Assembly: GCF_026130045.1 (NCBI RefSeq) | Contig: NZ_JAIBNX010000004.1 | Coordinates: forward strand, 64,273 to 120,124 | Length of the DNA stretch: 55,852 bases | From: Micromonospora sp. CPCC 205371 | GTDB lineage: Bacteria > Actinomycetota > Actinomycetes > Mycobacteriales > Micromonosporaceae | Direction: 5' to 3' | Part shown: positions 126 through 20,097 of the stretch, piece by piece | How the letters are laid out: each line of letters begins with the position of its first letter | Position numbering within the stretch: the stretch's first letter is position 1 | Translations under genes and position numbers: made by a program | The notes under the pieces: model-generated | What the model saw: only the letters and a program-made list of their open reading frames with translations | The model's database searches: none | Told to the model about the DNA's origin: nothing

Positions 126-3100
126 TCAGGCCTCGTCCCAGGCGTCGCGGCCCCATTCCCGCACCGCGTTGTAGTAGGTCAAGGCGAGCCCGTAACACTG
201 GCCTTGCCGATGGGATGGGGCCGCCGCGCAGACGTTCTTCAGATCCCACAGCATCGTCCAGTCGATGCGTACCCGGTAGTTCTCAGCACTGAGGCCGACT
301 CCCCTGTGGTTTCCGTAGCCGAAGTCATGCCGGTCGCACCCGGGCTTGAAGTTGAAACCGAACGGAGCGTCCGGTGAGTTGCTGCACCCGTTGCTGGACC
401 AGTCGAATCCGTACCCGGACCACCCGCCAGGTCCGGCCTGGAAACGTGCGCGTCCCTGGTGGGTGGGCTCGGTTATCTGCCAGTACGCCTGGCCCCGCGG
501 GAGCATCACGGTGGCGGCGGCCACATTGGACACCGATTGGGTGATGCGCTCGGCGATGAGGCGGAACTCGATGCGCTGGCCCGTCGCGTATGCGCTGGTG
601 TCGAAGGTGAAGGTCTGGTCACACAACCCCACTCCGTGCACCACCGGATGCTGCAGGCGCCGCCACCCGCCGCTGGTCCGGTACTCGATCCAGAGGTAGA
701 CGTAGCCGCCCGGGAAGAGCGTGCACTGCCATTTGAGCTGTACGTGTCCCGGTCGGGCGGACGCGCTCAGCGTCGGCACGTAGGGCGGCGGTGGTACCGG
801 GCGGGCGCTGGCCGTGTTCGAGGAGCCGCTCTGGCCGGCCTGGTTCGCCGCCGTGACCCTGAACTCGTACGTGAAGCCGTTCGCCAGCCCGGTGGCCACG
901 AACCGGGTGTGCAGCGTCGGGTACTGGAAGTAGTACCAGTTGGCGTGGCCCTGCGGGCGGAAGTACACCCAGTAGTACACGTTCGGCGTCGGGCTCGCGT
1001 TCCAGGTCAGCGTGACCTGCCCATCTCCGGCCACCGCGCTCAGCCCGGACGGCGCCGCCGGCAGGGGCAGGAACGGTGTGGCCGCCACCGTATTGGAGAA
1101 TCCGCTCTGCCCGCCGCCGTTGGCCGCGGTCACCTTGAACTCGTACCGGAACCCGTTCCACAACCCGGTCGCCACGAACCGCGTGTCGAGCGTCGGATAC
1201 TTGAAGTAGTACCAGTCGGCGTGGCCCTGCGGCCGGAAGTACACCCAGTAGTACACGTTCGGGGTAGCGCTGGCGTTCCAGTTCAGCGTCACCGTGCCGT
1301 TGCCGGCCGCCGCGCGCAGGCCGGTCGGTGCCGCGGGCGGCGGCTGGAACGGGGTGGCGGCCACCGTATTGGAGAACCCGCTCTGCCCGCCGAGGTTCGC
1401 CGCGGTCACCTTGAACTCGTACCGGAACCCGTTCCACAACCCGGTCGCCACGAACCGCGTGTCAAGCGTCGGATACTTGAAGTGATACCAGTCCGTGTGA
1501 CCCTGCGGCCGGAAGTACACCCAGTAGTACACGTCAGGCGTCGGACTCGGGTTCCAGGCCAGTGTGACCTGGCCGTTGCCGGCCACCGCTGTCAGGCCGG
1601 ACGGGGCCTGTGGCGCGGGCGGCACCGGCGTGGAGCTGACCACATTGGACGGCGCACTCTCCCCCGCGGCGTTGACAGAGGTGACGCGGAACTCGTACCT
1701 GTGCCCGTTGGTCAGGTTCTCGACGGTGTGCCACCACTCGGGCACCGAGTAGGGCAGCTTCTTCCACGTGGTCTGCCCGGCGGTGACGTCGCGCAGGTAG
1801 ATGTTGTAGGTCGTGGCGGTCGCGTTCTGGTTCCACCCGAGGCCGACCTTGCCGTCGGCCGCGATCGCGGACAGGCCGGTCGGCGCGGTGGGCGCGGGCG
1901 GCAGCGGCCGCGCCTTGGCCACATTGGATGGTTCGCTGTCGCCGGACGCGTTGGTCGCGGTCACCTTGAACTCGTACTCGGTGCCGTTCTTCAGGCCGCC
2001 TACGGTCGTACTGGTGGCGGTGGCCGGCCACTCCAGGCGGGTGAAGCCGCCGGTGCCGGTCGCCTCCCGGTAGTAGACCCAGTAGTAGACGTTGGGCGTG
2101 GGGCTGGCCGTCCAGGACAGCCGCACCTCGCCGTTGCCGGCCACGGCGACCAGTCCGGTCGGTGGCCGCGGCAATCCGCCCTGCGCGGTGACCCGGATGG
2201 TGTCCGAGGCCGGCCCCTCACCGCCGGCGTTGATCGCCGACACCTTGAACTCGTACACGTGGCCGTGAACGAGCGCGCCGGTGGTCGCCGACGTGGTGGT
2301 CGCCGGGTAGACGCCCTTGGTGAAGGTGGCCTGTCCGGCGGTCACGTCGCGCTGGTACACCCAGAACCACAGGTCTTCGCCGGGTGAGTCCCAGGTCAGG
2401 TCGACGGTGCCGTCACCGGCGGTCTGCCCACGCAGGTTCGTCGGCGCGCCGGGCAGCGCATAGTGGACGGTCGCCCGGACCGGTGCGGCGGTGGGCCCGT
2501 CGCCGGCCAGGTTGGTGCCGGCGACCGTGAACTCGTACACGTGGCCGTGCGCGAGCCCCTTGACCGTGATGGCCGTGCCGTCCGTGACCGGGTACGCCAG
2601 CTTGGTGTAGTCGGACTCCCCGGCCGTCACGTCGCGCCGGTACACCCAGTAGTAGAGGTTCGGGCCGGGGGCGGTCCACTCCAGACGGACACCGCCGGTG
2701 TCGCTGGCGGCAGCGGTCAGCCCGGTCACGACCTTCGGCAGCGGCGGCATCGGCTTCGCCTTCGCCACGGCGCTGGCGCCACCCTCGCCGGCGGCGTTGA
2801 CCGCCGAAACCTTGAACTCGTACTCGTGCCCGTTGGCCAGCCAACCGATCGTCGCCGTCGGGCCCTCCGTCACCGGATACTCGGCCTTCGTGAACACGGT
2901 GTCGCCCGCGGTGACGTCGCGGTAGTAGACCCAGTACCAGGAGTTCGGCACCGCCGTCCACTCCAGAACGACCTCGCCGTCGCCCGGCGTGGCCCGCAGC
3001 CCCGCCGGCACACCAGGCAGGTCGTAGCGGGCGGTCGCGCGTACCGGCGCGCTGCGTGGCCCGTCCCCGGCGGCGTTGATGCCGGCGACGGCGAACTCGT

Positions 3101-5561
3101 ACTCGTGCCCGGCCAGCAACCCTCCCGGGCGAGCGGTCGTGCCCTCGGTGACCGGATACTCCAGCCTCCGGAACTCCGTCTCGCCGCCGGTCACGTCCCG
3201 CAGGTACACCCAGAAGTAGAGGTTCGGACCGGGCGCCGTCCACTCCAGACTGACCGTGCCGTCGCCGTTGGCGGTCGCCTCCAGCCCGGTGGGAGCGCCG
3301 GGCTTGTCGTGCCGGGCCGTCGCGCGGATCGTGCCGCTGCGCTGGCTCTCCCCACCCTGGTTGATGGCCGACACGGCGAACTCGTACTCATGCCCGTCGA
3401 GCAAGGCGCCAGGACGAGCCGTCGTGCCCTCGGTGACCGGATACTCCAGCTTCCGGAACTCGGTCTCGCCACCGGTCACGTCCCGCAGATACACCCAATA
3501 CCAGACGCCGGCACCGGAACCGGTCCAGTTCAGCGTCACGCTCGCGTCGGCGTTCACCGTCGCCGCCAGCTCCGTCGGCACGCCGGGCAGGTCGTAGCGG
3601 GCCGTCGCCCGCACCGCCACGGTCGCCGGACCCTCGCCGCCACCGTTGATCGCGGAGACCTTGAACTCGTACTCGTGCTCGTGTAGCAGCCCGGTGGCGT
3701 GGAACGCCGGCCCCTGCGTCACGGGGTACTGAAGCTTCGTGAACGTGGCCTCCCCGGCGGTCACGTCCCGCTGGTACACCCAATACCAGACGTCGGGGCC
3801 GGGCGCCTCCCAGCTCAACCGCACCCCGCCAGCGCCGTCCGCCGACGCGGCCAGCCGCCCCGGGGCACCCGGAAGGGTGTAGAAGGCCCGCGCGGTGACC
3901 GGGGCACTGCGCGGGCTGTCCCCCGCGCCGTTGCGAGCGACGACGACGAACTCGTAGTCGTGCTCGTGGACAAGCTTGCGTGCCGTCGCCGTCCTCCCGA
4001 AGGGCGAGTCCGGTTCGAGGGTGGCGAACTCGTTCTGCTGCTCGGTGAGGTCCCGCAGGTACACCTGGTACTGCGCCGGCCCCGCCACCGCCGACCAACT
4101 CAACGCGATCTCGCCCGTCCCCCTGGGTGCGGCCGTCAGACCGGTCGGCGCGGCCGGTGGTACGACGTCGATGGTGACGGACCGCACGTCGCTCGGCTGG
4201 CTCTCCCCGGCGGCGTTGACCGCCGCGACGCGAAACTCGTACGTGTGCCCGTCCCTCAGCAGCGCCACCTCGGCGCTCGGCTCCGGCTCGACGCGCGCGG
4301 AGCGGGTGAAGTGGGTCTGGCCCGCCGTCACGTCCCTGCGATACACCCGATACCCGGTGGCACCCGCCACCGGCGTCCAAGCCAGCCGGATCGGGTCGCT
4401 GGCGCCCTCGATCGTGAACCCGGCGGGACGGGCGGGCAGCGCAGCGGGGTCCGGCGCCGGCAGCGGCCACGCGACCTCGAAGAAGCGTGGCCGGTAGATG
4501 CGGGCGTCGGCCGTGTTGTCGCCGTCCCCCAGGCTGTTGACGTTGTACGAGATCAGCAGCTTCCCGTCGGCCGCCAGCGCCGGATGGGTACGCGCGTCGT
4601 AGATGATGTGCGACGGGTTCGCCGCCGGCTCCGGCGCGTCGAGCAGGTACCGCGGCGCGCCGAACGGCCCGGTCGGGCTGGCCGCGACGTGCGCGACCAC
4701 CGACGGGCCGAACAGGGTGTTGGTGTCCTGGGTGACCAGCACGTAGTCGTCACCGATCCGGTCGACCGAGTAGCCGCCGACGCCGCTCATCACCCGGGCC
4801 GACTGCGCCTCGTTCGCCGACCAGGCCGAGCCGGTCCAGAACTCCCAGCTCCCGGCGAGGCCGCCGCTGGCCCGGGCCACGTGCGCGAACTTCAGGCCCT
4901 CGACGTCTTCCAGACCGTACACATAGGTCTGCCCGCCATCCTGGAGAATCGTCGTGCCCCAGGCGATCCGGTCGCTCACCGGCACGGCGGTCACGCTTGT
5001 CAGCGTCAGGCCGGGCAGCGCGAACGTGGCCAGGGCGGTGCCGGCGAGCTCGACGTCGAGCGGGCCGGTGCCGGTCTTGCGGTAGCGATTGTAGAGCACC
5101 TTCAACGCGCCCTCGTCGACGACGCCGTCCGTGACCCAGAACAGTTCGTCGGCGACGCCGGTGTCCACCAGCGCCTTCGGCGCGGCAGCCGTGCCGCCGT
5201 GCAGCGTCTGCCCAAGCACCGTCCCCTGCTGGACGACGATGGTGTTGTTCACCATCGGCGTGTCAGCTGGCCGGCTATGGTCGGGGTTGACCGTTCCGAG
5301 GTAGGTGTCGGAGTACAGCCAGGCGACCCGGCCGTCCGGAAGCGCCACGGAGACCGTGGAGTCCCCGCCGGTCCAGTGGCCGCCGGCGTCGCCGTAGCTG
5401 CCCCACAACGAGTTCAGGGCGGCGGCGGACATTTTGGAGGGCTGGAAGGCGGCGGAACTCGGCACCGCCCACAGGAAGCTCACGACGATGAGGGCGACGA
5501 GCGCCCGCACCCCGAACCTACGCCCCTTGGCTGTGCTCAGCGACGACATGGCCAGCATCAT
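126..5561 (-). CDS. Giant secreted fibronectin-III repeat protein with C-terminal phospholipase A2 domain
   Basis: About 1811 residues. The chosen ATG has an AAAGGG ribosome site nine bases upstream; an upstream TTG (5579) and a GTG (5564) are alternatives. An N-terminal signal peptide is followed by a roughly 330-residue domain resembling DUF4185/DUF5005-type propeller proteins (WGSYGDAGGHWTGGDS). Then come about 14 fibronectin III repeats of about 92 residues with a shared core (YWVYxRDVTAGxT, YEFKVSAINxxGE). The last 100 residues match secreted streptomycete phospholipase A2: FDWSSNGC holds the calcium-binding Asp, CDRHDFGYGN the catalytic His-Asp pair, RIDWTMLWDLK the second catalytic Asp, and four Cys are conserved. 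The product is probably extracellular and cleaves acyl esters of phospholipids or similar lipids, with the repeats as spacer or adhesin. It is the last gene of a run with a sugar importer and GH42. The domain architecture is seen in the sequence; substrate and role are inferred. Confidence 0.88.
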   Translation of the reverse strand: MMLAMSSLSTAKGRRFGVRALVALIVVSFLWAVPSSAAFQPSKMSAAALNSLWGSYGDAGGHWTGGDSTVSVALPDGRVAWLYSDTYLGTVNPDHSRPADTPMVNNTIVVQQGTVLGQTLHGGTAAAPKALVDTGVADELFWVTDGVVDEGALKVLYNRYRKTGTGPLDVELAGTALATFALPGLTLTSVTAVPVSDRIAWGTTILQDGGQTYVYGLEDVEGLKFAHVARASGGLAGSWEFWTGSAWSANEAQSARVMSGVGGYSVDRIGDDYVLVTQDTNTLFGPSVVAHVAASPTGPFGAPRYLLDAPEPAANPSHIIYDARTHPALAADGKLLISYNVNSLGDGDNTADARIYRPRFFEVAWPLPAPDPAALPARPAGFTIEGASDPIRLAWTPVAGATGYRVYRRDVTAGQTHFTRSARVEPEPSAEVALLRDGHTYEFRVAAVNAAGESQPSDVRSVTIDVVPPAAPTGLTAAPRGTGEIALSWSAVAGPAQYQVYLRDLTEQQNEFATLEPDSPFGRTATARKLVHEHDYEFVVVARNGAGDSPRSAPVTARAFYTLPGAPGRLAASADGAGGVRLSWEAPGPDVWYWVYQRDVTAGEATFTKLQYPVTQGPAFHATGLLHEHEYEFKVSAINGGGEGPATVAVRATARYDLPGVPTELAATVNADASVTLNWTGSGAGVWYWVYLRDVTGGETEFRKLEYPVTEGTTARPGALLDGHEYEFAVSAINQGGESQRSGTIRATARHDKPGAPTGLEATANGDGTVSLEWTAPGPNLYFWVYLRDVTGGETEFRRLEYPVTEGTTARPGGLLAGHEYEFAVAGINAAGDGPRSAPVRATARYDLPGVPAGLRATPGDGEVVLEWTAVPNSWYWVYYRDVTAGDTVFTKAEYPVTEGPTATIGWLANGHEYEFKVSAVNAAGEGGASAVAKAKPMPPLPKVVTGLTAAASDTGGVRLEWTAPGPNLYYWVYRRDVTAGESDYTKLAYPVTDGTAITVKGLAHGHVYEFTVAGTNLAGDGPTAAPVRATVHYALPGAPTNLRGQTAGDGTVDLTWDSPGEDLWFWVYQRDVTAGQATFTKGVYPATTTSATTGALVHGHVYEFKVSAINAGGEGPASDTIRVTAQGGLPRPPTGLVAVAGNGEVRLSWTASPTPNVYYWVYYREATGTGGFTRLEWPATATSTTVGGLKNGTEYEFKVTATNASGDSEPSNVAKARPLPPAPTAPTGLSAIAADGKVGLGWNQNATATTYNIYLRDVTAGQTTWKKLPYSVPEWWHTVENLTNGHRYEFRVTSVNAAGESAPSNVVSSTPVPPAPQAPSGLTAVAGNGQVTLAWNPSPTPDVYYWVYFRPQGHTDWYHFKYPTLDTRFVATGLWNGFRYEFKVTAANLGGQSGFSNTVAATPFQPPPAAPTGLRAAAGNGTVTLNWNASATPNVYYWVYFRPQGHADWYYFKYPTLDTRFVATGLWNGFRYEFKVTAANGGGQSGFSNTVAATPFLPLPAAPSGLSAVAGDGQVTLTWNASPTPNVYYWVYFRPQGHANWYYFQYPTLHTRFVATGLANGFTYEFRVTAANQAGQSGSSNTASARPVPPPPYVPTLSASARPGHVQLKWQCTLFPGGYVYLWIEYRTSGGWRRLQHPVVHGVGLCDQTFTFDTSAYATGQRIEFRLIAERITQSVSNVAAATVMLPRGQAYWQITEPTHQGRARFQAGPGGWSGYGFDWSSNGCSNSPDAPFGFNFKPGCDRHDFGYGNHRGVGLSAENYRVRIDWTMLWDLKNVCAAAPSHRQGQCYGLALTYYNAVREWGRDAWDEA
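500..4440 (-). repeat. Tandem array of ~14 fibronectin III coding units (~276 bp each)
   Basis: The units can be read directly as repeated DNA. The three nearest the phospholipase domain (about 800-1630) are the most alike: the block around 1128-1190 recurs 276 bases on, around 1404-1466, almost unchanged. The N-terminal units (about 2200-4000) form a second subfamily carrying RDVTAGxTxFTK and YPVTEG. This pattern suggests recent unequal duplication or gene conversion in the C-terminal units. Confidence 0.85.
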
Positions 5562-5618
5562 CACCGGCCGCCCTTTCAAAACCCCTTCACTTCTGCGTCA
5601 CGCTGAAGCCAGCTCCGT

Positions 5619-7727
5619 TTACGAGGGCTCGACGAGCACCCGCACGTCCCAAGGGCCGAGGTTCAGCGCCGTGCCGCGAGGCGTGCTGATGCCGTCGAGG
5701 ACGTCGGTCAGGTGCACCGGGGCCTGCGCCTGGGTGGGCTCCCAACTCCAGTTGTGCACGACGTGGACGCGCCGCCCGTCCGGGGCCGTGCCGCTCGTCG
5801 CGGTGACGGAGCCCGGAAGGTCGCGCCACCCGCTGGCCGGCACCGGGACAAGCCACGCGGCCAACGCCTGGGCGAGGTCGCGGTTGGGAACGGTGCCGAC
5901 GTAGGTGACGCGGCCTTCGCCGTGGCGGCGGGTGGTGACGGCGGGCCAGCGCCCGAAGTGTGGATGCTCGTACCCGGCGAGCACCTCGGCGTCGACGACG
6001 GTGAGGCAGTCGACCCACTGAGTCGCCGCCGCGCCCTCAGGCAGGCGGAGCGATCCGCTGACCGGGACCTCGTTCACGTTGCTGAATTCGTCGTACCAGA
6101 CACCGGCCGCCTCGACGAGGCGGGCGGGTGCGGGCTCATGCCGCGCCCGCGCCTCGTGGTCGGCGTAGGCGGTGCGCGGACCGAGCACGAGGTGCCCGCC
6201 CGCGTGGGCGTACGCCGCGAGCCAGTCGATCGTCGCGTCGTCGACCACGTAGAGCGCGGGCACGACGAGGACGGGGTGCCGCCGCGCGGCCTCATCCGGC
6301 CTCGTCCCACGCAACTGTCGCGCGTGGACGATCCGCACCTGGCGGCCGGCGTCGAACGCGCCGCGGTAGAAGGGGTCGAAGATCCGGTGGTACGCGGCCG
6401 CGTCCGGCCCACCGTCGGGGGTGGACAGCGGCGGGTACTTCTGCATCAGCCACTTGCTGGGCGTCGAGTACACCATCGCGATGTCGGCGTCCGGATCGAG
6501 GCCGGCGACCAGCGGCCCGGCCTTGTCGAATTCGGCGCCCAGGCGCGCCAGCTCCGCGTAGGTGCGACCCGGCTGCCCGCTGTGCGGCAGGACCCCACCC
6601 CAGTAGGTCTCCGCGCCGAAGCGCAGCGTCTGCCACTGCCAGTACTCGATCATCCGGGCGCCGCGGGCGACGTGAGCCCACGCCGCCTGGCGCCATTGGC
6701 CGTCGTAGCCGGGCCGGTTGTCCCACGGGAAGCCGATGGACTGTGCGTTGGTCTCGGTGACCAGAAACGGTGCCTGGCGCGAGGAGTACATCCAGTCGGC
6801 GGTCTGGTACATCGACCAGACGCCGGTGGTCTTCCAGACCTGTTCGTGCCCGTCCGGCGTCGGGTCGGGCAGCAGCAGGCCGTCCTGCATGTCGTAGTAC
6901 GGGTTGCCGGAGGCGATGTCGAGGCGGGCGGACAGCTCATCGTCCGCCACGCCCTGGCGCGTGTACGAGATGCAGGTGGTGACGAACTGGTGGGCCGCGG
7001 CGAACTCGCGGACGATGTCGGCCTGCCAGCCGATGAACTCGGTGACCTGACGGGCCTGGAACTCCCGCCACGCCACGTCGTACTGCGGCTGCGCGTTGCC
7101 GTCCGGCGTCCACAAGTCGGCCCATGTGGACAGTCGATGCGACCAGTAGACGAGGCCCCACTCGCGGTTGACGGTCTCGACGTCGCCGTACCTGTCGCGC
7201 AGATGGTCCACGAACCGTTGGAAGACGCCGTGGTTGTGAAACAGGTGCAGGCCGGGTTCGTTGTCGACCTGCCAGCCGATGACCGCGGGGTGTTCGACGT
7301 ACCGAGCGACGATCTTGCGGATCACCCGTTCGGCGTGGTGCCGGAAGGCGGGATGGGTGAAGTCGACCTCCTGGCGAGCACCCCAGCCGATGCGCTGTCC
7401 GGTGGCGTGCTCGCCGGTGATCTCCGGGTACTGGCGGGCCAGCCACGGCGGTACGGCGTAGGTCGGTGTGCCGATGATGACGGAGATCCCGCGTTCGTGT
7501 GCGCCGTCGAGGACCGGCTGTAGCCAGTCGAGGTCGAACGTCCCGTTCTCCGGCTCCCATGTGGACCAGACCGACTCCCCGACCCGGATGACCGTGAAGT
7601 TGGCCTCCACCATCAGGTCCAGGTCGGTCTTGAGCCGCTCGTCAGGCCTGAGGTCAGGATCGTAGGCGGGCGTGTACTCGTGGTAGTACGCGGCGCCGAA
7701 CAGGACACGGGCGGGCAGTACCGCCAT
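5619..7727 (-). CDS. GH42 beta-galactosidase, cytoplasmic
   Basis: 702 residues, the usual GH42 size, with no signal peptide, so it should act inside the cell on imported galactosides. The (beta/alpha)8 N-terminal half carries GAAYYHEY near the start, the acid/base glutamate in DNEPG (Glu157) and the nucleophile in VTETNAQS (Glu325). A trimerisation domain and a small beta domain follow. The ATG has GGAGG nine bases upstream. The gene lies 15 bases downstream of the sialidase-like gene and 57 bases upstream of the fibronectin/phospholipase gene, so it belongs to the same transcript as the ABC importer. GH42 enzymes release terminal beta-D-galactose, and some family members use alpha-L-arabinopyranosides. 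The exact substrate is not determined. Confidence 0.93.
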   Translation of the reverse strand: MAVLPARVLFGAAYYHEYTPAYDPDLRPDERLKTDLDLMVEANFTVIRVGESVWSTWEPENGTFDLDWLQPVLDGAHERGISVIIGTPTYAVPPWLARQYPEITGEHATGQRIGWGARQEVDFTHPAFRHHAERVIRKIVARYVEHPAVIGWQVDNEPGLHLFHNHGVFQRFVDHLRDRYGDVETVNREWGLVYWSHRLSTWADLWTPDGNAQPQYDVAWREFQARQVTEFIGWQADIVREFAAAHQFVTTCISYTRQGVADDELSARLDIASGNPYYDMQDGLLLPDPTPDGHEQVWKTTGVWSMYQTADWMYSSRQAPFLVTETNAQSIGFPWDNRPGYDGQWRQAAWAHVARGARMIEYWQWQTLRFGAETYWGGVLPHSGQPGRTYAELARLGAEFDKAGPLVAGLDPDADIAMVYSTPSKWLMQKYPPLSTPDGGPDAAAYHRIFDPFYRGAFDAGRQVRIVHARQLRGTRPDEAARRHPVLVVPALYVVDDATIDWLAAYAHAGGHLVLGPRTAYADHEARARHEPAPARLVEAAGVWYDEFSNVNEVPVSGSLRLPEGAAATQWVDCLTVVDAEVLAGYEHPHFGRWPAVTTRRHGEGRVTYVGTVPNRDLAQALAAWLVPVPASGWRDLPGSVTATSGTAPDGRRVHVVHNWSWEPTQAQAPVHLTDVLDGISTPRGTALNLGPWDVRVLVEPS

Positions 7728-7742
7728 GAAGGAACCTCCGAG

Positions 7743-10151
7743 TTAGGGCTTGGTGACCTTGATTGCGGCGGACTGGGCCGACGGTCGGGAGTTGCCCACC
7801 GCGTTGATGGCGACGACCTTCGCCGTGTACCGGCCCAGCGCCACGTTCGAGAAGGTCGCTTGTGTGGCGCCGGCCGCGACGGCCTGGGTCAGCACCTCGC
7901 CGGACGCGTGCCTGAGGAACACCTCGTAGCCGGTGATCGGTGAACCACCGTCGGCCGGCGCCTGCCAGGTCACGATGACGTCGGTGCCGGACACGGCGAT
8001 CGCCGGCGCGTCCGGAGCGGACGGCACCGTGGCCGGCCGGACGGTGACCGTGTCCCACACTAGTGGCGTGTGGTCGAAGACCACCGCGAGCTTCAGCCTG
8101 GTGCCGACCGCGATGGTCTCCGGAAGCGTCACGCTGCCCTTCTGCGCGCCGTCGAAGAAGACCGCGCCGAGGTCCGTCACCACTCCGGTGGTCGCGTACG
8201 CGTAGGCGTGGCCGGTCGTGTTCGCGTGCAGGGCGTTGCCCGCCGGGTCCGTCGCCGTGGCGTCCAGCGGCAGGGTCGCCTTCTGCCCCACCGGGTTCGC
8301 CGCGACCAGGCCCGCCGACTCCGTGGCCGGCGTCAGCGACTTCCTCACCGGCGGCTGCTGGACGAGCCGCCACTCCTGTGAGCCGTCGTCGGTCGCGTTC
8401 TGCAAGGTGAGCGGCGCGCCCGCTGACCCACCGGTCAGGTACACGTTGGTGTTTCGGGCCGCCTGGAGCCGGTAGTGCCCGTCGCCGACCGCGACGAGGT
8501 TCCACAGGCCCGCCGGTGTGTCGTCGACCCACTGCCCGATCCGCTGGCCGACCGTGGCGTTGCCGGTCCAGATGGCCGCCGCGCGCCCGCCGGCCTTGTT
8601 CAGCAGCGTTCGCGCGCCATCGGACTTGGTAACCAGGTGCCAGTACTGAGTGTCCTTGTTGGACACCGAGCCGGCGTCCTCCAGGCGGACGTCGGGGTCG
8701 TCGCCGTTGCCGATGTTCGCGTCGTTGCTCTTGCCTCCGGTGCCGACCACCTGGCCGGTCTTGCGGTTCACGAGTTGGTAGTAGGCGCCATCCGAGCGGC
8801 CCAGGTCGACCTCGGCGTACGCGATGGTGGAGATGCCCTGGTTGCGCAGGATCACGACGCGCCCGGTGCCCTCGACGTACTGCAGGTTGCGGCTGTAGCC
8901 GGGGCCCAGCGTCGTCTGGTACTCCTTCCAGACGCCGTCGCTGCGCCCGCTCTCGTTGACCCACACGTTGCCGCTGCCGGCGGCGTTGTAGACCAGCCGC
9001 CCGTCGGGAAGCCGGATGAGCACCGGGCTACCGCCCGTGGCGAGGGTGCGGGAGCCGGCGTCGACGGGCAGCGAGGTGATGGCCTTGCCGGCGGCGTCGC
9101 CGTCCGCGTAGAACGCAAGCGGGTCGTCGGCGAGCTTGTACCGTACGTTGGCGCCGCCGCCCCAGTACTCGTAGGTGATGAGCCACTTGCCGTCCGTCGT
9201 CGGGACGACATTGGTCATGCCCGGCCGTCCACCCCCGATCTCCGACTTGCCGCCGCCCATGTCCTGGGTCAGCCCTGCGACGTCGATGACCGCTTCGCTC
9301 CATGTTGGACCGACGCCGTCCCACGTCTTGTGCGCGAGGACCTGGCCGTGCGAGTCGGTGGCGGTGTCGTTGGCCGGGTCCAGGGTGGCGACGCCGGTAA
9401 CCGGATCGAAGCCCAGATGGCCGTTCTCGTCCGAGTAGTAGCAGACGAGCTTGCCCTCGTGGACCATCAGGTACGGCTCCCAGAGGGGATCGACCTGGCG
9501 GTGGGTGTTGGCGCCCGCGACGTTGCGGCCGATCGCGCCGGCGCTGCCGCCCTGCCATCCACCGGTGGCGATGACGTTGACGACGTTCCAGGTCACGCCC
9601 TCGTCGGTGCTGGAGAACAGGGCGATGGCCAGGTCCTTGCGGTCTCCGTCGTTCGACGGTGTCCAGTTCGGATCGGCGGCCTTCTGTTCCCGGTAGTAGT
9701 GGTCTTCACCCGACACGACGCTCGCCAGCAGCAGGGTGCCGGCCTTCAGACCGCCGACGTCCTGCGGAAGGGCGTACAGGTACGGGTTCGTCCAGTTGCT
9801 GACGTACTTCGCGAAGAGCGGGTCGCCGGACAGGTACGCCGGTGCCTTGACCTCCGACAGCGGCTGCCACGTCGTGCCGTAGTCGTCGCTGGCGTAGATA
9901 GGCAGGGTCTCGCCGTCGGCGCCGCCGGTGGCGGGTACCACGGTGGCTTTCTCGAACGAGGCGACCAGGCGCCCGCTCGGCAGCTGCGCCGACTTCGGGT
10001 ACACCGCGCAGTTGCCACGCCCCTTCAGGCAAGGCTCGTCACCGAGTTGGTACATGATGCCGCCGGTCGGGTTGTACGCCTGCGCGGTCGGTCCGGGAAT
10101 CATGAACGCCGCGGATGCCACGACGATGACTCCAAGCAGGTGTCTTTTCAT
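7743..10151 (-). CDS. Secreted sialidase-fold (BNR) protein with ricin-type lectin, Ig-like and fibronectin III domains
   Basis: 802 residues from the ATG that has GGAGG nine bases upstream (longer frames to 10298 are rejected). The signal peptide ends about ...PTAQA. Residues about 30-430 resemble a sialidase-type beta-propeller with two Asp-box motifs, SDDYGTTW and SSTDEGVTW. Residues about 430-600 are a ricin-B beta-trefoil (QYWHLV, GLWNLV, QEWRLV repeats). An Ig-like segment follows, and the last 85 residues are a fibronectin III domain. It lies 16 bases after the second permease gene. It probably binds and trims an extracellular glycan. True sialidase activity is unproven, since proteins of this fold include arabinanases, other exo-glycosidases and non-catalytic lectins. 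Confidence 0.85.
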   Translation of the reverse strand: MKRHLLGVIVVASAAFMIPGPTAQAYNPTGGIMYQLGDEPCLKGRGNCAVYPKSAQLPSGRLVASFEKATVVPATGGADGETLPIYASDDYGTTWQPLSEVKAPAYLSGDPLFAKYVSNWTNPYLYALPQDVGGLKAGTLLLASVVSGEDHYYREQKAADPNWTPSNDGDRKDLAIALFSSTDEGVTWNVVNVIATGGWQGGSAGAIGRNVAGANTHRQVDPLWEPYLMVHEGKLVCYYSDENGHLGFDPVTGVATLDPANDTATDSHGQVLAHKTWDGVGPTWSEAVIDVAGLTQDMGGGKSEIGGGRPGMTNVVPTTDGKWLITYEYWGGGANVRYKLADDPLAFYADGDAAGKAITSLPVDAGSRTLATGGSPVLIRLPDGRLVYNAAGSGNVWVNESGRSDGVWKEYQTTLGPGYSRNLQYVEGTGRVVILRNQGISTIAYAEVDLGRSDGAYYQLVNRKTGQVVGTGGKSNDANIGNGDDPDVRLEDAGSVSNKDTQYWHLVTKSDGARTLLNKAGGRAAAIWTGNATVGQRIGQWVDDTPAGLWNLVAVGDGHYRLQAARNTNVYLTGGSAGAPLTLQNATDDGSQEWRLVQQPPVRKSLTPATESAGLVAANPVGQKATLPLDATATDPAGNALHANTTGHAYAYATTGVVTDLGAVFFDGAQKGSVTLPETIAVGTRLKLAVVFDHTPLVWDTVTVRPATVPSAPDAPAIAVSGTDVIVTWQAPADGGSPITGYEVFLRHASGEVLTQAVAAGATQATFSNVALGRYTAKVVAINAVGNSRPSAQSAAIKVTKP

Positions 10152-10167
10152 GAGAAAACCTCCGTTG

Positions 10168-11022
10168 TCACTGCTTGACGCCGCCGGTGGTGAGGCCGCT
10201 TTGCCAGTAGCGCTGGAGTAGCAGGAATGCCACGACGAGGGGGATGATCGAGAGTAGGGAGCCGGTGACGACGTAGGCGAGCATGTCGCTGTTGGCACCG
10301 GAGCCGCCGCCGACGGCTTGGGCGGACCAGGAAGCGAGTCCGACGGTGATGGGGTAAAGGTTGGGGTCGTTGAGCATGATCAGGGGTAGGAAGTAGTTGT
10401 TCCAGGTGGAGACGAGGGTGAACAGCACGACCGTCACGAACCCCGGTGCCAGCAACCGCATGGCGATCCGGGCGAAGATCTGGAACTCGCCGGCGCCGTC
10501 GATGCGGGCGGCCTCGATGAGGCTGTCGGGTATGGCGTCTTGGGCGTAGACGCGCATCAGGTACAGGCCGAACGGGCTGACCAGCGACGGCAGGATGATC
10601 GCCCACGGCGTGTTGACCAGGCCTACCTTCGCGAACAGCAGGTACGTCGGGATGGCGAGCGCCGTGGTCGGCACCATGATGGCGCCCAGCACCACGTTGA
10701 ACGCGACCCGGTCGCCCCGGAAGCGAAACTTGGCGAACCCGTACCCGCCGGCGGCGGCCAGCAGCGCCGCACCTACCGAGCTGGCCACGGCGTAGATGCC
10801 GGTGTTCACCAGCCAGCGCACGAAGACACCGTGGTCGTGGGTCAGGGTCGCCCGGATGTTGGCCCATAGTTGTGGGCTGTCCGAGAACCACAGCCCGAAG
10901 GTGGTGAACAGGTCCTGGGTGCTTTTGGTTGAGGCGACCAGTAGCCAGAACAGCGGCAGCAGGAAATACCCGAGTGCGGCGAGCATGGCGATGGTCAACG
11001 GTGTGCTGCGCCGGCGGGTCAT
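10168..11022 (-). CDS. Sugar ABC transporter permease (MalG/CUT1 type)
   Basis: 284 residues with six predicted membrane spans. The EAA loop EAARIDGAGEFQIFARIAM, where the ATPase docks, is characteristic of MalG-like inner-membrane subunits of CUT1 carbohydrate importers. The ATG overlaps the stop of the preceding permease (ATGA), so translation is coupled. No ATP-binding gene is present in this run; actinobacteria often share one MsiK-type ATPase among several such importers. The substrate is inferred to be an oligosaccharide or glycoside from the neighbouring GH42 and sialidase-fold protein. Confidence 0.94.
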   Translation of the reverse strand: MTRRRSTPLTIAMLAALGYFLLPLFWLLVASTKSTQDLFTTFGLWFSDSPQLWANIRATLTHDHGVFVRWLVNTGIYAVASSVGAALLAAAGGYGFAKFRFRGDRVAFNVVLGAIMVPTTALAIPTYLLFAKVGLVNTPWAIILPSLVSPFGLYLMRVYAQDAIPDSLIEAARIDGAGEFQIFARIAMRLLAPGFVTVVLFTLVSTWNNYFLPLIMLNDPNLYPITVGLASWSAQAVGGGSGANSDMLAYVVTGSLLSIIPLVVAFLLLQRYWQSGLTTGGVKQ

Positions 11023-11915
11023 GTGCTTCTGCCCCGGTTGGCGGTGAGCAGGACGGCGTAGGAGAAGATCACGATGATCAGGCCGAGCAGGAACGACACC
11101 GCGGCCGCGTAGTTGATTTGCTGGCTGGTGAAGGCCAGCGTGTAGGCGTACAGGTTGGCGGTGTAGGCGCTGTCGACGACGTTGGGTGCGATGTCGCGTA
11201 GCAGTCTGGGCTCGTTGAATAGTTGGAAGCTGCCGATGACCGAGAACACCAGGGTCAACATGAGTGCCGGCCGTAGCGCGGGTAGTTTGACGGACCAGGC
11301 TGTCCGCCAGGCGCCGGCGCCGTCGACGGCGGCGGCCTCGTACAGGTCTTGCGGGATGGCGCGCAGCGCCGCGTACAGGATGATCATGTTGTAGCCGACG
11401 AATTCCCAGGTGACGATGTTGGCCAGGCTGCCCAGCATCCACCCGTCGGTCAGGAAGGCCGGGGCCGGTAGGGACAGCGTCCGGGCCAGTTGGGCGAACG
11501 GGCCGTAGTCCGGTCCGTAAAGGTAGCCCCACATGAGGGCGGCGACCACGCTGGGCACCGCGTAGGGCACGAAGATGCCCAGCCGGACCACACGCGATAG
11601 CCGCAGCAGTCCACTGTCCAGCGCGAGGGCGAACACCAGCGCCAGCAGCAGCATGACGGGTACCTGGACGGCGAAGAACGTGGCCACCCGCACGATCCCG
11701 CGGATCAGTTGCGGGTCCTGCACCGCGGTGACGTAGTTGGAAAGCCCCACGAACGAGGTCCCGCCCACCAGCCGGTCCTGAAACAGGCTCAGATAGGCGG
11801 CGTACGCCAGCGGCCCGATGAAAAGCAGCAGGAACAGCAGCAGAAACGGGGCGACGAACAACGGCCCCGCCGCACGGCGGTGTGCCGTGCGGCGCTGCGC
11901 GGAAACAACGGTCAT
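11019..11915 (-). CDS. Sugar ABC transporter permease (MalF/CUT1 type)
   Basis: 298 residues. A basic N-terminus (RRTAHRRAAGP) precedes six hydrophobic spans, and the EAA loop reads EAAAVDGAGAWRTAWSVKL. The ATG shares one base with the stop of the upstream binding-protein gene (TGATG), and its own stop overlaps the next permease. The binding protein and both permeases are therefore one translationally coupled unit. It forms the membrane channel heterodimer with the downstream MalG-type subunit. Confidence 0.94.
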   Translation of the reverse strand: MTVVSAQRRTAHRRAAGPLFVAPFLLLFLLLFIGPLAYAAYLSLFQDRLVGGTSFVGLSNYVTAVQDPQLIRGIVRVATFFAVQVPVMLLLALVFALALDSGLLRLSRVVRLGIFVPYAVPSVVAALMWGYLYGPDYGPFAQLARTLSLPAPAFLTDGWMLGSLANIVTWEFVGYNMIILYAALRAIPQDLYEAAAVDGAGAWRTAWSVKLPALRPALMLTLVFSVIGSFQLFNEPRLLRDIAPNVVDSAYTANLYAYTLAFTSQQINYAAAVSFLLGLIIVIFSYAVLLTANRGRST

Positions 11916-13291
11916 CACGAGTCCCGGACGGTGAAGCCCTGGCTCTTGGCGAACGTGGTCAGCCGGGTCTGCCACTGATCCAGCGCGACCACGGCGTCGG
12001 TCTTGTCGGCCAGGGACTTGCCGACCGTCTCGGTCCAGTCCGTCACCGCCCGGTCCAGGAACGGCGGCCACTGGAACGACAGGTTGATCGTCGAGCTGAT
12101 GTCGGCGAAGACCTGGTTGACCCGCTGGCCACCGTAGAAGGCCGGCGCGTCGCCCACGTAGCTGGGGTCGGCCAGCAGCGCCTTGGTCGCCGGGAACAGG
12201 AACTGCTTGGTGGTGAACAGCTTCACGGTTTCGGGGTCGCTGTTGAGGAACTGGGCGAACTGCGCCGCCACGATCGCGTTCTTGCTCGTCTTGATGACCG
12301 CGCTGGTCGAGCCGCCCCAGTTGCCGGAGGTCGGCTTCGAGGCGTCCCACTGCGGCAGCGGCGCCGCCCGCCACTTGCCCGAAGTGGACTTCGCCGAACC
12401 GGCCAGGAACACCGGCCCCCACGCAGCGGTCAGCCAGGTCGCGTACTTGCCCCGGTTCAGCGCGTTGAACCAGGCGTCGGTGAAGTTCGCCTCGGTGCCG
12501 ATGACGCCTTCCTTAGCGAGCCCACCCCAATACCGCGCCAGCTTCTTGGCCGCCTCGTCGTTCACCTTCAGCGTGATGTCGCTCGCGCCAGACACCGCGT
12601 ACGGCGCGGCGCCCGCCTGCCAGAGCAGGCCGTGCCAGGCGGCGGCTTCGTTCGCCGACAGGCAGGTCAGGTACACGTTGGGGTCGGCCGCGTGCAGCTT
12701 GCGCGCCGCGGCGGCGAACTCATCCCAGGTCTTCGGCACCGCGATGCCATGCTTGTCGAAGATGTCCTGCCGATACAACATCCCCATCGGCCCGGTGTCC
12801 TGCGGGATCGCCCATACCTCACCGTTCTCGCCACTGACCTGACCCCACGTCCAGTCCACGAACCGATCCCTGAGCGCCTCCGCACCATACGGCCGCAAAT
12901 CCAACAGGTCGCCGGTGATAGTGAACGTCGGAATGTACTGGAACTCCATCTGCACCACATCCGGCGCGCCGGTGCCGGCCTTCAACGCAGTCCGCAGCTT
13001 CGTGTAATGCTCCGTGCCCCGGCCGGCGTTGACCACCTTCACCTTGATAGCCGGGTACTTCTTCAGGAACAGATCCACCTCCTGCTGGATGTCCGGCACC
13101 CACGTCCAGAACGTCAACTCCGTCGGCGTCGACATCGCCTTGTCGATGTCCGCCTGGCTGACCGGCCCCGCGGGAGCCGTGTCGTTGTTGTCGTCGCCGC
13201 CCCCGCAGGCGGCCAAAGCCGCGCCGAGCGGCACCGCTCCCGCCGTGGCGAGCAAGGCGCGGCGGCTAACCGGAGGAGAGAATCTAGGCAT
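11915..13291 (-). CDS. Sugar-binding lipoprotein of ABC transporter (SBP family 1)
   Basis: 458 residues. The N-terminus has a twin-arginine-like stretch (VSRRALLATAGA) and lipobox LAAC, so the product is probably exported by Tat or Sec and anchored by lipid to the outer face of the membrane. The body has the two-lobed family 1 solute-binding layout (TELTFWTWVPD, DVVQMEFQYIPTF, WAIPQDTGPMGMLY, WNASKPTSG-like aromatic patches typical of sugar contact). GGGAG lies eight bases before the ATG. It is the first gene of the importer, 90 bases after the LacI gene, and delivers sugar to the two permeases that follow. Confidence 0.93.
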   Translation of the reverse strand: MPRFSPPVSRRALLATAGAVPLGAALAACGGGDDNNDTAPAGPVSQADIDKAMSTPTELTFWTWVPDIQQEVDLFLKKYPAIKVKVVNAGRGTEHYTKLRTALKAGTGAPDVVQMEFQYIPTFTITGDLLDLRPYGAEALRDRFVDWTWGQVSGENGEVWAIPQDTGPMGMLYRQDIFDKHGIAVPKTWDEFAAAARKLHAADPNVYLTCLSANEAAAWHGLLWQAGAAPYAVSGASDITLKVNDEAAKKLARYWGGLAKEGVIGTEANFTDAWFNALNRGKYATWLTAAWGPVFLAGSAKSTSGKWRAAPLPQWDASKPTSGNWGGSTSAVIKTSKNAIVAAQFAQFLNSDPETVKLFTTKQFLFPATKALLADPSYVGDAPAFYGGQRVNQVFADISSTINLSFQWPPFLDRAVTDWTETVGKSLADKTDAVVALDQWQTRLTTFAKSQGFTVRDS

Positions 13292-13323
13292 GGTGAAACT
13301 CCCGTCATGTGGGCAGGGGTTAT

Positions 13324-13345
13324 CAACGCGCTGCGTACAACGCGC
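13324..13345. promoter_or_regulatory. Direct repeat CAACGCGC x2 upstream of the sugar importer
   Basis: The octamer CAACGCGC occurs at 13324-13331 and again at 13338-13345, a spacing of 14 bases, in the 90-base gap between the LacI gene and the binding-protein gene. It lies where an operator for the importer run would be expected. It does not resemble the long inverted repeat at 14471-14498, so assignment to the neighbouring LacI protein is uncertain. Confidence 0.3.
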
Positions 13346-13381
13346 ACAAGAGACAGTGCTATGTGGACAGAAGACGGCGGG

Positions 13382-14428
13382 TCAGCGTCGACTAGCCGCC
13401 GGCGGTGGTGCGGTGGATGTGCGAACGATCAGTTCCACCGGTGGGTCGACCGCGGGTGGCGGGTCGGCGTCCGGTTTCTCGATGGCCTGCACCAGAAGCT
13501 TGAGTCCTTCTTGGGCGACGGCATCGAACGGCTGGCGCACGGTGGTCAGAGGAGGTGTCACGAACGCGGCGAGCGGGATGTCGTCGAAACCGACGACGCT
13601 GACGTCTTCGGGCACCCGGCGACCGGATTCCAGCAGCCCGCGGAGCAGACCGATGGCCATGTCGTCGTTCGCGGCGAACACCGCGGTCACGTCGCGGTCC
13701 GCCGCCAGTCTCCGGCCGGCCTCGTACCCGGACGCGGCGGACCAGTCGCCTTCGACGACCGGCGGTTCGGCCCGGCCGTGCGCCCGCAGCGCGGATCGCC
13801 AACCCTCCACCCGGTCCCGCGCGGCGTACCACCGCTGCGGTCCGGCCAGGTGGTGGACGGTCGGGTGGCCCAGGCCGAGCAGGTGTTCGGTGGCGGCCCT
13901 GGCCAGGGCGTCGGCGGCGACTCCGACTGTGATCACCTTGGGCGCGGCGAAGGCCGGTGGCGCGCCGAGCACGAGTACCGGCACGTCGACCCGGACCGCG
14001 CCCGCGCCCTCGTCTATCGGCTCGGAGATCACGATGCCGTCGACGCCTTGCTCGATCAGAGATTGGACCGCGCCGGTTGCCCCGCCCGGGTCGCCTTCGA
14101 CCGTGTTGACGACGCGCAGCGCGTATCCGGCGTCGCGCACCGCCCGCTCGACGCCCATCAGGAGCGAGGCGGGACCGTAGAGGGCGGTGCCGAGGGTGAC
14201 CACCCCGATGGAGCGGGAGCGGCCGGACGCGAGGGCCCGCGCCGCGTGGTTGAGCCGGTAGCCGAGCTCCTCGGCCGCGGCCATGACCCGCTGGCGCACG
14301 TCGGCGGAGACGTACGGCTCGTTGTTGAAGACCCTGGACACGGTCTTCTGCGAGACGCCGGCCACGCGTGCGACATCGGCGCTGCGCGGCGCGGCGGCGT
14401 TTCTGCCCCGTCCCACCATCCGCGTCAT
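13382..14428 (-). CDS. LacI-family transcriptional repressor
   Basis: 348 residues. The N-terminal helix-turn-helix (ADVARVAGVSQKTVSRVFNNEPYVSADVRQRV) and hinge are followed by a periplasmic-binding-like effector domain (IGVVTLGTALYGPASLLMGVERAVR ... VVGFDDIPLAAFVTPPLTTVRQP). The last block is the family's dimerisation signature. It stands immediately upstream of, and collinear with, the sugar importer/GH42 run and should repress that run until the sugar ligand appears. A 28-base inverted repeat 43 bases upstream of its start suggests autoregulation. The identity of the inducer is unknown. Confidence 0.93.
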   Translation of the reverse strand: MTRMVGRGRNAAAPRSADVARVAGVSQKTVSRVFNNEPYVSADVRQRVMAAAEELGYRLNHAARALASGRSRSIGVVTLGTALYGPASLLMGVERAVRDAGYALRVVNTVEGDPGGATGAVQSLIEQGVDGIVISEPIDEGAGAVRVDVPVLVLGAPPAFAAPKVITVGVAADALARAATEHLLGLGHPTVHHLAGPQRWYAARDRVEGWRSALRAHGRAEPPVVEGDWSAASGYEAGRRLAADRDVTAVFAANDDMAIGLLRGLLESGRRVPEDVSVVGFDDIPLAAFVTPPLTTVRQPFDAVAQEGLKLLVQAIEKPDADPPPAVDPPVELIVRTSTAPPPAASRR

Positions 14429-16654: not shown

Positions 16655-16683
16655 TTGACGTGAATCTAGGAAAGGCGTACGGT
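16655..16683 (+). promoter_or_regulatory. Candidate promoter TTGACG-N17-TACGGT for the LPMO/GH5 operon
   Basis: A -35-like TTGACG (16655-16660) and a -10-like TACGGT (16678-16683) are separated by 17 bases. The GAAACTTTC box at 16693-16701 falls around the expected transcription start, a classic repressor position. This is visual assignment only. Confidence 0.45.
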
Positions 16684-16692
16684 GCCGGCACA

Positions 16693-16701
16693 GAAACTTT
16701 C
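16693..16701. promoter_or_regulatory. GAAACTTTC box (proximal) of the LPMO/GH5 operon
   Basis: Palindromic box followed by G, giving GAAACTTTCG. It lies about 80 bases before the LPMO start codon and roughly ten bases downstream of the candidate -10. Similar CGAAA/TTTCG boxes are known upstream of streptomycete xylanase genes. Binding by a LacI-type repressor is inferred. Confidence 0.6.
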
Positions 16702-16780
16702 GCTGCGGGAGCCATGCAGCGTTCGCGGAGGCAGGGCAAAGCGTCCGCGGGCACCCCCCATCAGGACTACTGGAGGGTCC

Positions 16781-17821: not shown

Positions 17822-17831
17822 GGAGCACTTA

Positions 17832-19943: not shown

Positions 19944-19952
19944 CCCCTGACT

Positions 19953-19989
19953 GCCGCCCGGTCCGAGGGTGGGTCCCGGGCCGGGCGGC
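19953..19989 (+). terminator. Hairpin terminator after the LPMO-GH5 operon
   Basis: GCCGCCCGG (19953-19961) pairs perfectly with CCGGGCGGC (19981-19989) across a 19-base loop, starting ten bases after the GH5 stop. It lacks a U-run, as is common for terminators in high-GC actinobacteria. Confidence 0.6.
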
Positions 19990-20066
19990 TCCTCGTTGTG
20001 GGTACCGTTCTCCGCGATCTTCGCCGAGCAAAGAACGCTTGTCCCTGGCATCGATGTCCACCTATA

Positions 20067-20084
20067 GTGGGCAACGTTTCCCAC
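20067..20084. promoter_or_regulatory. Near-perfect palindrome GTGGGCAACGTTTCCCAC upstream of the polyesterase gene
   Basis: An 18-base dyad with one mismatched pair and central AACGTT, ending 13 bases before the start codon. This position would block transcription or translation initiation if bound. A central CG within a compact dyad is typical of LacI-family operators. It differs from the GAAASTTTC boxes, so this gene may have its own regulator. Confidence 0.55.
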
Positions 20085-20097
20085 ACAGGGAGGATCG

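What the first reader, a model, noticed from the sequence alone, without database searches (positions are those of the whole stretch)
126..5561. Phospholipase A2 domain carried at the tip of a 14-repeat fibronectin III rod
The C-terminal 100 residues retain all the calcium and catalytic positions of the small secreted streptomycete phospholipase A2 (FDW, HDFGYGN, RID). Those enzymes are normally stand-alone proteins of about 120 residues. Here the domain sits at the end of a roughly 1800-residue secreted protein, after a propeller-like domain and a long repeat stalk, as if displayed on a surface. I know no described protein with this order.
Basis: partly seen in the sequence, partly recalled or inferred. 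Interest (0 to 1): 0.62.

Follow-up and report, generated by a model that had tools for sequence, protein, structure and literature searches.

The report
Phospholipase on a swappable-tip protein rod
A soil actinobacterium encodes a very long secreted protein with a sugar-cleaving-type head, a rod of 14 repeats and a fat-splitting enzyme at its far end, and its relatives carry the same head and rod with other domains at the tip, which suggests an interchangeable set of tools for attacking the envelopes of other cells.

Summary
Window 126-5561 (-) is one open frame of about 1811 aa: signal peptide, 5-bladed propeller, 14 fn3 repeats and a C-terminal phospholipase A2 (PLA2) domain of the Streptomyces type with its active-site residues and four Cys kept. 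No frameshift. 'No described protein with this order' needs two corrections. The architecture recurs: complete in Nocardioides speluncae, split over two contigs in Allorhizocola. And PLA2 at the C-terminus of stalked bacterial toxins is in print (Tox-PLA2, PMC3482391), with RHS/ALF stalks. The tools add more. The head is a DUF5005/GH183-type propeller with the catalytic Asp pair invariant in 28 of 28 sequences. In Micromonosporaceae this head plus an fn3 rod carries at least ten kinds of tip: PLA2, CHAP, an HExxH domain, GDSL lipase and six groups without a name. The same tip sits on non-sister heads (AU p 5.6e-6 for PLA2). No immunity gene was found. Best reading: a polymorphic-toxin-like secreted envelope-attacking protein; target and toxicity are inferred. 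A nutritional role is the main rival.

The parts
126..5561 (-). whole gene: secreted head-rod-PLA2 protein, about 1811 aa from ATG 5561 (frame open from 5579)
5448..5561 (-). Sec-type signal peptide (hydrophobic stretch aa 21-46 of the open frame)
   Evidence: cleavage site read by eye
4440..5447 (-). head: 5-bladed propeller of the DUF5005/GH183 type (aa 45-380)
5307..5363 (-). catalytic Asp pair of the head (Asp73 at 5361-5363, Asp91 at 5307-5309), spacing 18 as in EndoMA1 Asp33/Asp51
   Evidence: invariant in 28 of 28; for EndoMA1
507..4436 (-). rod: 14 fibronectin type III repeats (aa 382-1691)
129..506 (-). tip: phospholipase A2 domain (aa 1692-1817); Pfam match 150-413; Asp1726 402-404, His1751 327-329, Asp1752 324-326, Asp1773 261-263
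5619..7727 (-). context: GH42 beta-galactosidase gene, 57 bases upstream of the ATG
7743..10298 (-). context: frame of a secreted protein with RicinB lectin and one fn3 domain
10168..14428 (-). context: ABC permease (10168-11532), solute-binding protein (11915-13291) and LacI regulator (13382-14428)

Best explanation
The protein is a polymorphic-toxin-like exoprotein that attacks cell envelopes. Shown by sequence and model: Sec-type signal, DUF5005/GH183-type propeller with an intact Asp pair, 14-repeat fn3 rod, PLA2 domain with its active-site residues, and relatives in which the same kind of head and rod ends in other small domains. Inferred: after secretion the head binds and perhaps cuts a glycan (wall arabinan or another envelope or matrix glycan); the rod, roughly 50 nm if each fn3 is about 3.5 nm (recalled), spans wall or capsule; the PLA2 at the far end hydrolyses sn-2 acyl chains of exposed phospholipids of a competing or dead cell with calcium. 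Sister proteins with CHAP, HExxH or GDSL tips would hit peptidoglycan, protein or other lipids by the same delivery body. Tips have been exchanged between bodies during evolution.
For: Head, rod and tip. Variable tips: all-against-all phmmer of 45 C-termini gives 11 groups, one of them tipless. PLA2-bearing heads are not one clade (AU p 5.57e-6), nor are CHAP-bearing heads (p 1.2e-4) (both groups were named after the tree was seen). Against Allorhizocola the tip is the least conserved part: 58% against 65-85% for the 14 repeats and 77% for the head. The own genome holds several such bodies: PLA2; CHAP plus subtilase; cutinase plus unnamed tip; subtilase (by eye) plus unnamed tip; one tipless; one with a broken frame. 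Carriers with different tips (L056 unnamed, L069 HExxH) and tipless ones (L087 and others) lie in one chromosomal region of different genomes, in neighbouring but not identical intervals. PLA2 and HExxH peptidase domains are known C-terminal toxins of polymorphic toxins, and PLA2 is listed there without an immunity partner.
Against: No immunity gene and no downstream family shared by the PLA2 carriers was found. No release peptidase or pretoxin domain in the window protein. In the window the gene ends what looks like a LacI/ABC/GH42 sugar operon, which speaks for feeding. fn3 arrays are common in actinobacterial polysaccharidases (recalled). Tips follow head ancestry in part (14 changes on the tree, 10 the least possible, shuffled mean 29.6), so exchange is not frequent. 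Against Nocardioides three repeats (36%, 27%, 41% over the parts that align) are less alike than the tip (43%), so fast change is not the tip's alone. Two of seven rod-borne PLA2 tips lack the FDW Asp (L071 Asn, L086 Ile). No activity or killing data.
Confidence: 0.5

Rival explanations
1. Nutritional exoenzyme: a multi-domain scavenging enzyme that degrades microbial or plant debris, the head cutting polysaccharide, the PLA2 releasing fatty acids, with products taken up by the adjacent ABC transporter.
For: The gene follows GH42, a RicinB protein, ABC transporter parts and a LacI gene on the same strand; the wider window holds LPMO-CBM2 and PETase-like-CBM2 genes; the head is of a glycoside hydrolase type.
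Against: tblastn finds neither the GH42 nor the RicinB gene in any of the 54 other fetched loci over 5 kb, with the window as positive control; these loci include the known flanks of the nearest relatives in Allorhizocola (L103 upstream, L017 downstream) and Nocardioides (L018). Most loci show only about 4 kb on a side. Feeding does not obviously need a long rod, and CHAP or unnamed tips fit carbohydrate feeding less well (inference).
Confidence: 0.3
2. Own-envelope remodelling: the proteins act on the producer's own wall and membrane during hyphal growth or sporulation; the head binds arabinose-containing wall glycan of Micromonosporaceae (recalled wall sugar).
For: A clade of tipless heads sits in a conserved chromosomal neighbourhood across genomes, as expected of a housekeeping role, and at least two tip-bearing genes (L056, L069) lie in the same region.
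Against: The heads are patchy (117 of 354 family genomes), the seven PLA2 carriers have unrelated neighbours, and tips have been exchanged. A free PLA2 acting on the own membrane would need control, and none was seen.
Confidence: 0.12
3. The PLA2 domain is a binding or inactive remnant at the rod end.
For: Lower conservation of the tip against Allorhizocola; loss of the FDW Asp in two of seven tips.
Against: His, two Asp and four Cys are kept in 7 of 7 tips and in 18 of 18 stand-alone relatives, and the window keeps FDW.
Confidence: 0.08

Closest known systems
Group XIV / prokaryotic PLA2 (PF09056; Streptomyces violaceoruber 1FAZ, Tuber borchii 4AUP, Saccharothrix 8K1W, Sciscionella 7YGK)
   Same: Fold, His-Asp and later Asp, four Cys, FDW and HDFGY motifs.
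   Different: Those are small secreted enzymes; here the domain is the last 126 residues of about 1811. All 7 rod-borne tips end in a short tail with a Trp; the stand-alone rows there were cut at the profile end, so the tail was not compared.
Tox-PLA2 of polymorphic toxin systems (Zhang et al. 2012, PMC3482391; passages and table rows seen)
   Same: PLA2 of the same fold (PDB 1kp4) as C-terminal module of long secreted proteins with filamentous N-terminal regions, actinobacteria among the holders, no immunity protein listed.
   Different: Repeats listed there are RHS and ALF; the words fn3 and fibronectin do not occur in the held part of the text. Here the body is a DUF5005/GH183-type propeller plus fn3 rod.
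Streptomyces umbrella toxin particles (PMC11062931; passages seen)
   Same: Secreted actinobacterial system with lectin parts, long stalk and variable C-terminal toxin.
   Different: UmbC uses ALF repeats and a coiled-coil stalk and forms a particle with other proteins; umbC1 and umbC3 have an immunity gene downstream. Here one chain, no ALF match, no immunity gene found.
GH183 endo-D-arabinanases / DUF4185 (EndoMA1 8HHV, 8IC1; PMC10509167 and PMC10115798, passages seen) and the DUF5005 protein 4HBS
   Same: 5-bladed propeller, Asp pair 18 residues apart.
   Different: The window head is under the DUF4185 cut-off (29.7 of 39.5 bits) but over that of DUF5005 (40.5 against 29.6), and structurally nearer 4HBS (Z 34.3) than EndoMA1 (Z 28.6-29.2). 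Substrate unknown.

Membership tests
Prokaryotic phospholipase A2 (PF09056, group XIV) | profile match over curated cut-off | tested here: met
   87.5 bits against 29.4, E 1.1e-24
Prokaryotic phospholipase A2 (PF09056, group XIV) | His/Asp dyad and Asp next to His; four Cys | tested here: met
   invariant in 25 of 25 aligned domains including the window
Prokaryotic phospholipase A2 (PF09056, group XIV) | helical PLA2 fold | tested here: met
   Foldseek 1faz E 4.6e-7, TM 0.86 by target; Z 17.2
Prokaryotic phospholipase A2 (PF09056, group XIV) | calcium-dependent sn-2 acyl hydrolysis | not testable with these tools
   needs an enzyme assay
Polymorphic toxin systems | conserved N-terminal body with variable C-terminal domains | tested here: met
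   45 C-termini fall in 11 groups; heads with PLA2 and heads with CHAP are each not a clade
Polymorphic toxin systems | C-terminal domain of a known toxin family | tested here: met
   PLA2 fold (1kp4 is among the entries sharing the sequence of the best PDB hit); motif CxxHxxxYxN present as CDRHDFGYGN, DxC[ST] present only as NGCS
Polymorphic toxin systems | immunity gene directly downstream | tested here: not met
   window: 10-N gap, then a convergent LacI-type gene; no flanking frame shared between PLA2 carriers except one distant pair, window and L018, 33.8% identical at 12.9 and 7.7 kb. The source table also lists none for Tox-PLA2
GH183 / DUF4185 | DUF4185 profile over cut-off | tested here: not met
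   window head 29.7 bits against 39.5; five of the seven places matched in this genome pass
GH183 / DUF4185 | catalytic Asp pair | tested here: met
   Asp73/Asp91, spacing 18, invariant in 28 of 28; EndoMA1 Asp33/Asp51
GH183 / DUF4185 | third essential Glu (Glu243 of EndoMA1) | tested here: inconclusive
   an invariant Glu exists (A1 position 273) but equivalence was not shown
GH183 / DUF4185 | 5-bladed propeller fold | tested here: met
   8ic1 Z 29.2, 3.0 A over 292 residues
GH183 / DUF4185 | endo-D-arabinanase activity | not testable with these tools
   needs an assay
DUF5005 (PF16396) | profile over curated cut-off | tested here: met
   40.5 bits against 29.6
Umbrella toxins (UmbC) | ALF repeats | tested here: not met
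   no ALF family among the 16 Pfam matches at E up to 1

The most novel reading that the evidence does not exclude
The head-rod proteins of Micromonosporaceae are a new class of stalked, freely secreted polymorphic effectors, distinct from RHS, ALF/umbrella and CDI types: a catalytic GH183-type head opens an arabinan-bearing envelope of rival actinobacteria, an fn3 rod of fixed reach carries an exchangeable tip to the membrane or wall, and the six unnamed tip groups are new toxins or lytic enzymes.
Probability: 0.28. Interest if true: 0.75.

Novelty: new variant of a known kind. Interest (0 to 1): 0.5.

Why it matters
If the body is a delivery rod, it is a new stalk type for exchangeable effectors in antibiotic-producing actinobacteria, it couples a cell-wall-arabinan type glycosidase fold to a phospholipase in one chain, and it points to six unnamed tip groups that can be tested one by one as envelope-active proteins.

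Tried and rejected
Surface anchoring: no sortase-like motif in the last 80 residues of the 50 frames examined (some cut by contig ends or frame breaks) and no C-terminal membrane segment in the window protein; covalent display was dropped. Immunity gene: looked for in the window's left flank and beside the carriers; none found, and the PLA2 carriers share no near neighbour. The gene calls in 59 and 96 are my own codon-composition heuristic, not a gene finder, and one search printed only the 25 largest clusters; one search listed all shared pairs with a tip-bearing member. My first reading that tip-bearing genes in general share no neighbours was wrong: L056 and L069 share 25 flanking frames, L077 and L082 (both CHAP) 26, and L064 shares 8 with L070, whose tip is unknown. 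Sugar-operon partnership as a family trait: not seen in 54 other loci (with control; one search had no control). HExxH tip against solved structures: nothing at E up to 5. Unnamed tips in Pfam, NCBIfam, PHROGs: nothing convincing; in NCBIfam and PHROGs one representative or two per group was scanned (L054 not in PHROGs). PLA2 tip tree: the 7 rod-borne tips lie on one side of a branch from 18 stand-alone ones, support only 89/80 with very long branches, so one capture followed by swapping is favoured but not shown. Plasmids: 10 records match the PLA2 part only (26-40% of a 324-aa query). A note of mine that two HxlR-type genes flanking the L071 carrier are identical was wrong: 35 of 384 bases differ. 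A ribosome-binding stretch first noted as GGGAGG is AAAGGG. Paper searches that returned no paper: PLA2 + fibronectin type III + actinobacteria (31), polymorphic toxin + PLA2 + fibronectin (61), GH183 + fibronectin type III (63), three of four of fn3/phospholipase/CHAP/Micromonosporaceae (90). DUF5005 alone gave one metagenome paper (89, listing only). The lipocone paper (PMC12419801) had PLA2 only in its references. A novel PLA2 beside a toxin (PMC11525133, passages) is a different family (DUF1353).

Rows dropped before the tree and tip counts: L052 and L079 (frame breaks), L070 (run of N, cut), L085 (contig end). L109 and L110 were fetched after the tree; L109 is in the tip clustering, L110 (a short frame) in neither. 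L103 was labelled PLA2 in the tree by inference, because its contig ends in repeat 3 and L017 begins at repeat 4 of the same alignment.

Full report
What is there. The reverse strand of window 126-5579 is one open frame of 1817 codons, starting most likely at GTG 5564 or ATG 5561 behind AAAGGG. Pfam finds DUF5005, 13 fn3 stretches and Phospholip_A2_3; I count 14 repeat starts 92-95 aa apart. The N-terminus has a hydrophobic signal segment and no C-terminal anchor follows. The genome is an unnamed member of Micromonosporaceae: family genome G019 has a contig of 16446 bases with the same match as the named Allorhizocola contig of that length (family name). It is 98.5% complete, and its only PF09056 match at E up to 0.001 is this one, whereas 226 of 300 family genomes sampled have the domain; the frames listed there are mostly short.

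The tip. phmmer against the PDB gives 1faz (E 2e-21), 7ygk, 4aup and 8k1w. The AlphaFold model of the last 144 residues (pLDDT 86) matches the same four entries. His1751, Asp1752, Asp1773 and four Cys are identical in 25 of 25 aligned domains; the FDW Asp1726 is kept in 5 of 7 rod-borne tips (not L071, L086) and 14 of 18 stand-alone ones (counted).

The head. A profile of 28 heads reaches 4hbs (E 4e-30) and the endo-D-arabinanase EndoMA1 (E 3.5e-9); the window head alone reaches 4hbs (E 1e-16) and not EndoMA1. The model (pLDDT 94) aligns to 4hbs at Z 34.3 and EndoMA1 at Z 28.6-29.2, with GH43 and relatives following at about 20. Asp73 and Asp91, 18 residues apart like EndoMA1 Asp33 and Asp51, are invariant in 28 of 28. 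The DUF4185 profile is below its cut-off for this head, so I do not file it as GH183; I call it a DUF5005/GH183-type propeller that probably is, or was, a glycosidase.

Relatives with the same tip. Of 42 stretches matching a pattern in genome contigs, 2 were confirmed: Allorhizocola rhizosphaerae and Nocardioides speluncae. The Nocardioides protein is complete: head, rod, PLA2. In Allorhizocola one contig ends in repeat 3 and another begins at repeat 4, which I take as one gene. Identity to the window falls from head (77% and 62%) to tip (58% and 43%). Against Allorhizocola all 14 repeats lie at 65-85%; against Nocardioides, which has fewer repeats, most lie at 49-70% and three align badly (27-41%).

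The same body with other tips. The head alone was searched in 354 Micromonosporaceae genomes; 117 have a match. I fetched 40 regions among its stronger matches, favouring long frames, besides 5 and 2 of the own genome. Clustering the last 130 residues of 45 proteins gives 11 groups: PLA2 7, CHAP 6, HExxH 4, GDSL 1, six unnamed groups (5, 5, 2, 2, 1, 1) and one group of 11 that simply ends in fn3. The names come from Pfam for PLA2 (window and L018), CHAP (L055) and GDSL and by eye for HExxH. Some members have extra subtilase or cutinase domains. The selection favours heads like the window's, so these are not frequencies. Outside the family, in a search of 246 genomes of the class, most listed matches to the head lie in much shorter frames.

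Tip exchange. On a tree of 44 heads the tip labels need 14 changes (10 is the least possible; shuffled mean 29.6): tips follow ancestry in part, but PLA2 heads as one clade are rejected (p 5.57e-6) and CHAP heads too (p 0.00012). The groups were chosen after seeing the tree and some branches are long, so I take this as good, not final, evidence that tips have moved between bodies. The alternative is repeated capture of stand-alone enzymes; the PLA2 tree mildly favours a rod-borne PLA2 lineage of its own (89/80).

Surroundings. The gene is the last of a same-strand series with GH42, a RicinB protein, ABC parts and LacI. On the other side lies a 10-N assembly gap and then a convergent LacI-type gene. 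tblastn finds GH42 and RicinB in none of 54 other fetched loci over 5 kb, with the window as control. The seven PLA2 carriers share no flanking frame with each other except one distant, weak pair. Other carriers do share ground: L056 (unnamed tip) and L069 (HExxH) have 25 flanking frames in common, and six tipless loci share frames with L056 and five with L069. The blocks show that the carriers sit in neighbouring but different intervals of one region, as if that region takes up such genes again and again. No immunity-type gene was seen.

What is known. Zhang et al. 2012 list Tox-PLA2 of the 1kp4 fold in stalked secreted toxins with RHS or ALF repeats, with no immunity protein, and HExxH Tox-MPTases among toxins (passages seen). 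The umbrella toxins show that actinobacteria secrete stalked polymorphic toxins (passages seen). The fn3 rod with GH183-type head as a body for such tips did not appear in my searches, which cover only the open-licence library.

Verdict. It is not filed as a polymorphic toxin because the immunity-gene feature was tested and not met. Which role is real, attack or feeding, cannot be told from sequence.

Noticed in passing
G587:C82:16939-79803 (-), loci L111-L114: A single open frame of 20,955 codons in a genome of the same order holds two heads of this propeller type near its middle (about codon 10,000-11,100); its N-terminus looked to me like a type VII secretion substrate (recalled resemblance, not tested).
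   Followed up: partly
L056, L069, L087 and other tipless loci: Head-rod genes with different tips or none lie in neighbouring intervals of one chromosomal region in different genomes: a possible integration hotspot.
   Followed up: partly
L065, L066, L067, L069 (C-terminal 150 aa): Tip family with HExxH (as in LLWHEQIHSVQW of L066) and an invariant downstream Glu; no convincing Pfam or NCBIfam match in the members scanned (L065, L066) and no PDB match of the profile.
   Followed up: partly
L056, L073, L075, L080, L088; L081, L091, L093, L100, L101; L068, L072; L102, L109; L083; L054 (C-terminal 100-150 aa): Six tip groups without a convincing Pfam or NCBIfam match in the representatives scanned (L109 was not scanned on its own).
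   Followed up: partly
L055, L056, L091, L101, L109 and L054: Some head-rod proteins also carry a subtilase (Pfam for the first four, by eye for L109) or, in L054, a cutinase domain beside the head.
   Followed up: no
L052 (own genome C35) and L079: Head-rod genes whose frame breaks within the rod; assembly error or pseudogene.
   Followed up: no
window 16682-21306: LPMO with CBM2 (16682-17821) and a PETase-like hydrolase with CBM2 (20098-21306); between them a likely + strand gene at 17805-19943 by codon composition, not scanned.
   Followed up: no
L071 2134-2517 and 10576-10959: Two similar HxlR-type genes (name by eye; 35 of 384 bases differ) lie on either side of a PLA2 carrier, as after a duplication or insertion.
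   Followed up: partly
L018 3472-10709: In Nocardioides the carrier lies between genes that read as tilS and hpt, with a VapBC-like pair next (names by eye).
   Followed up: no
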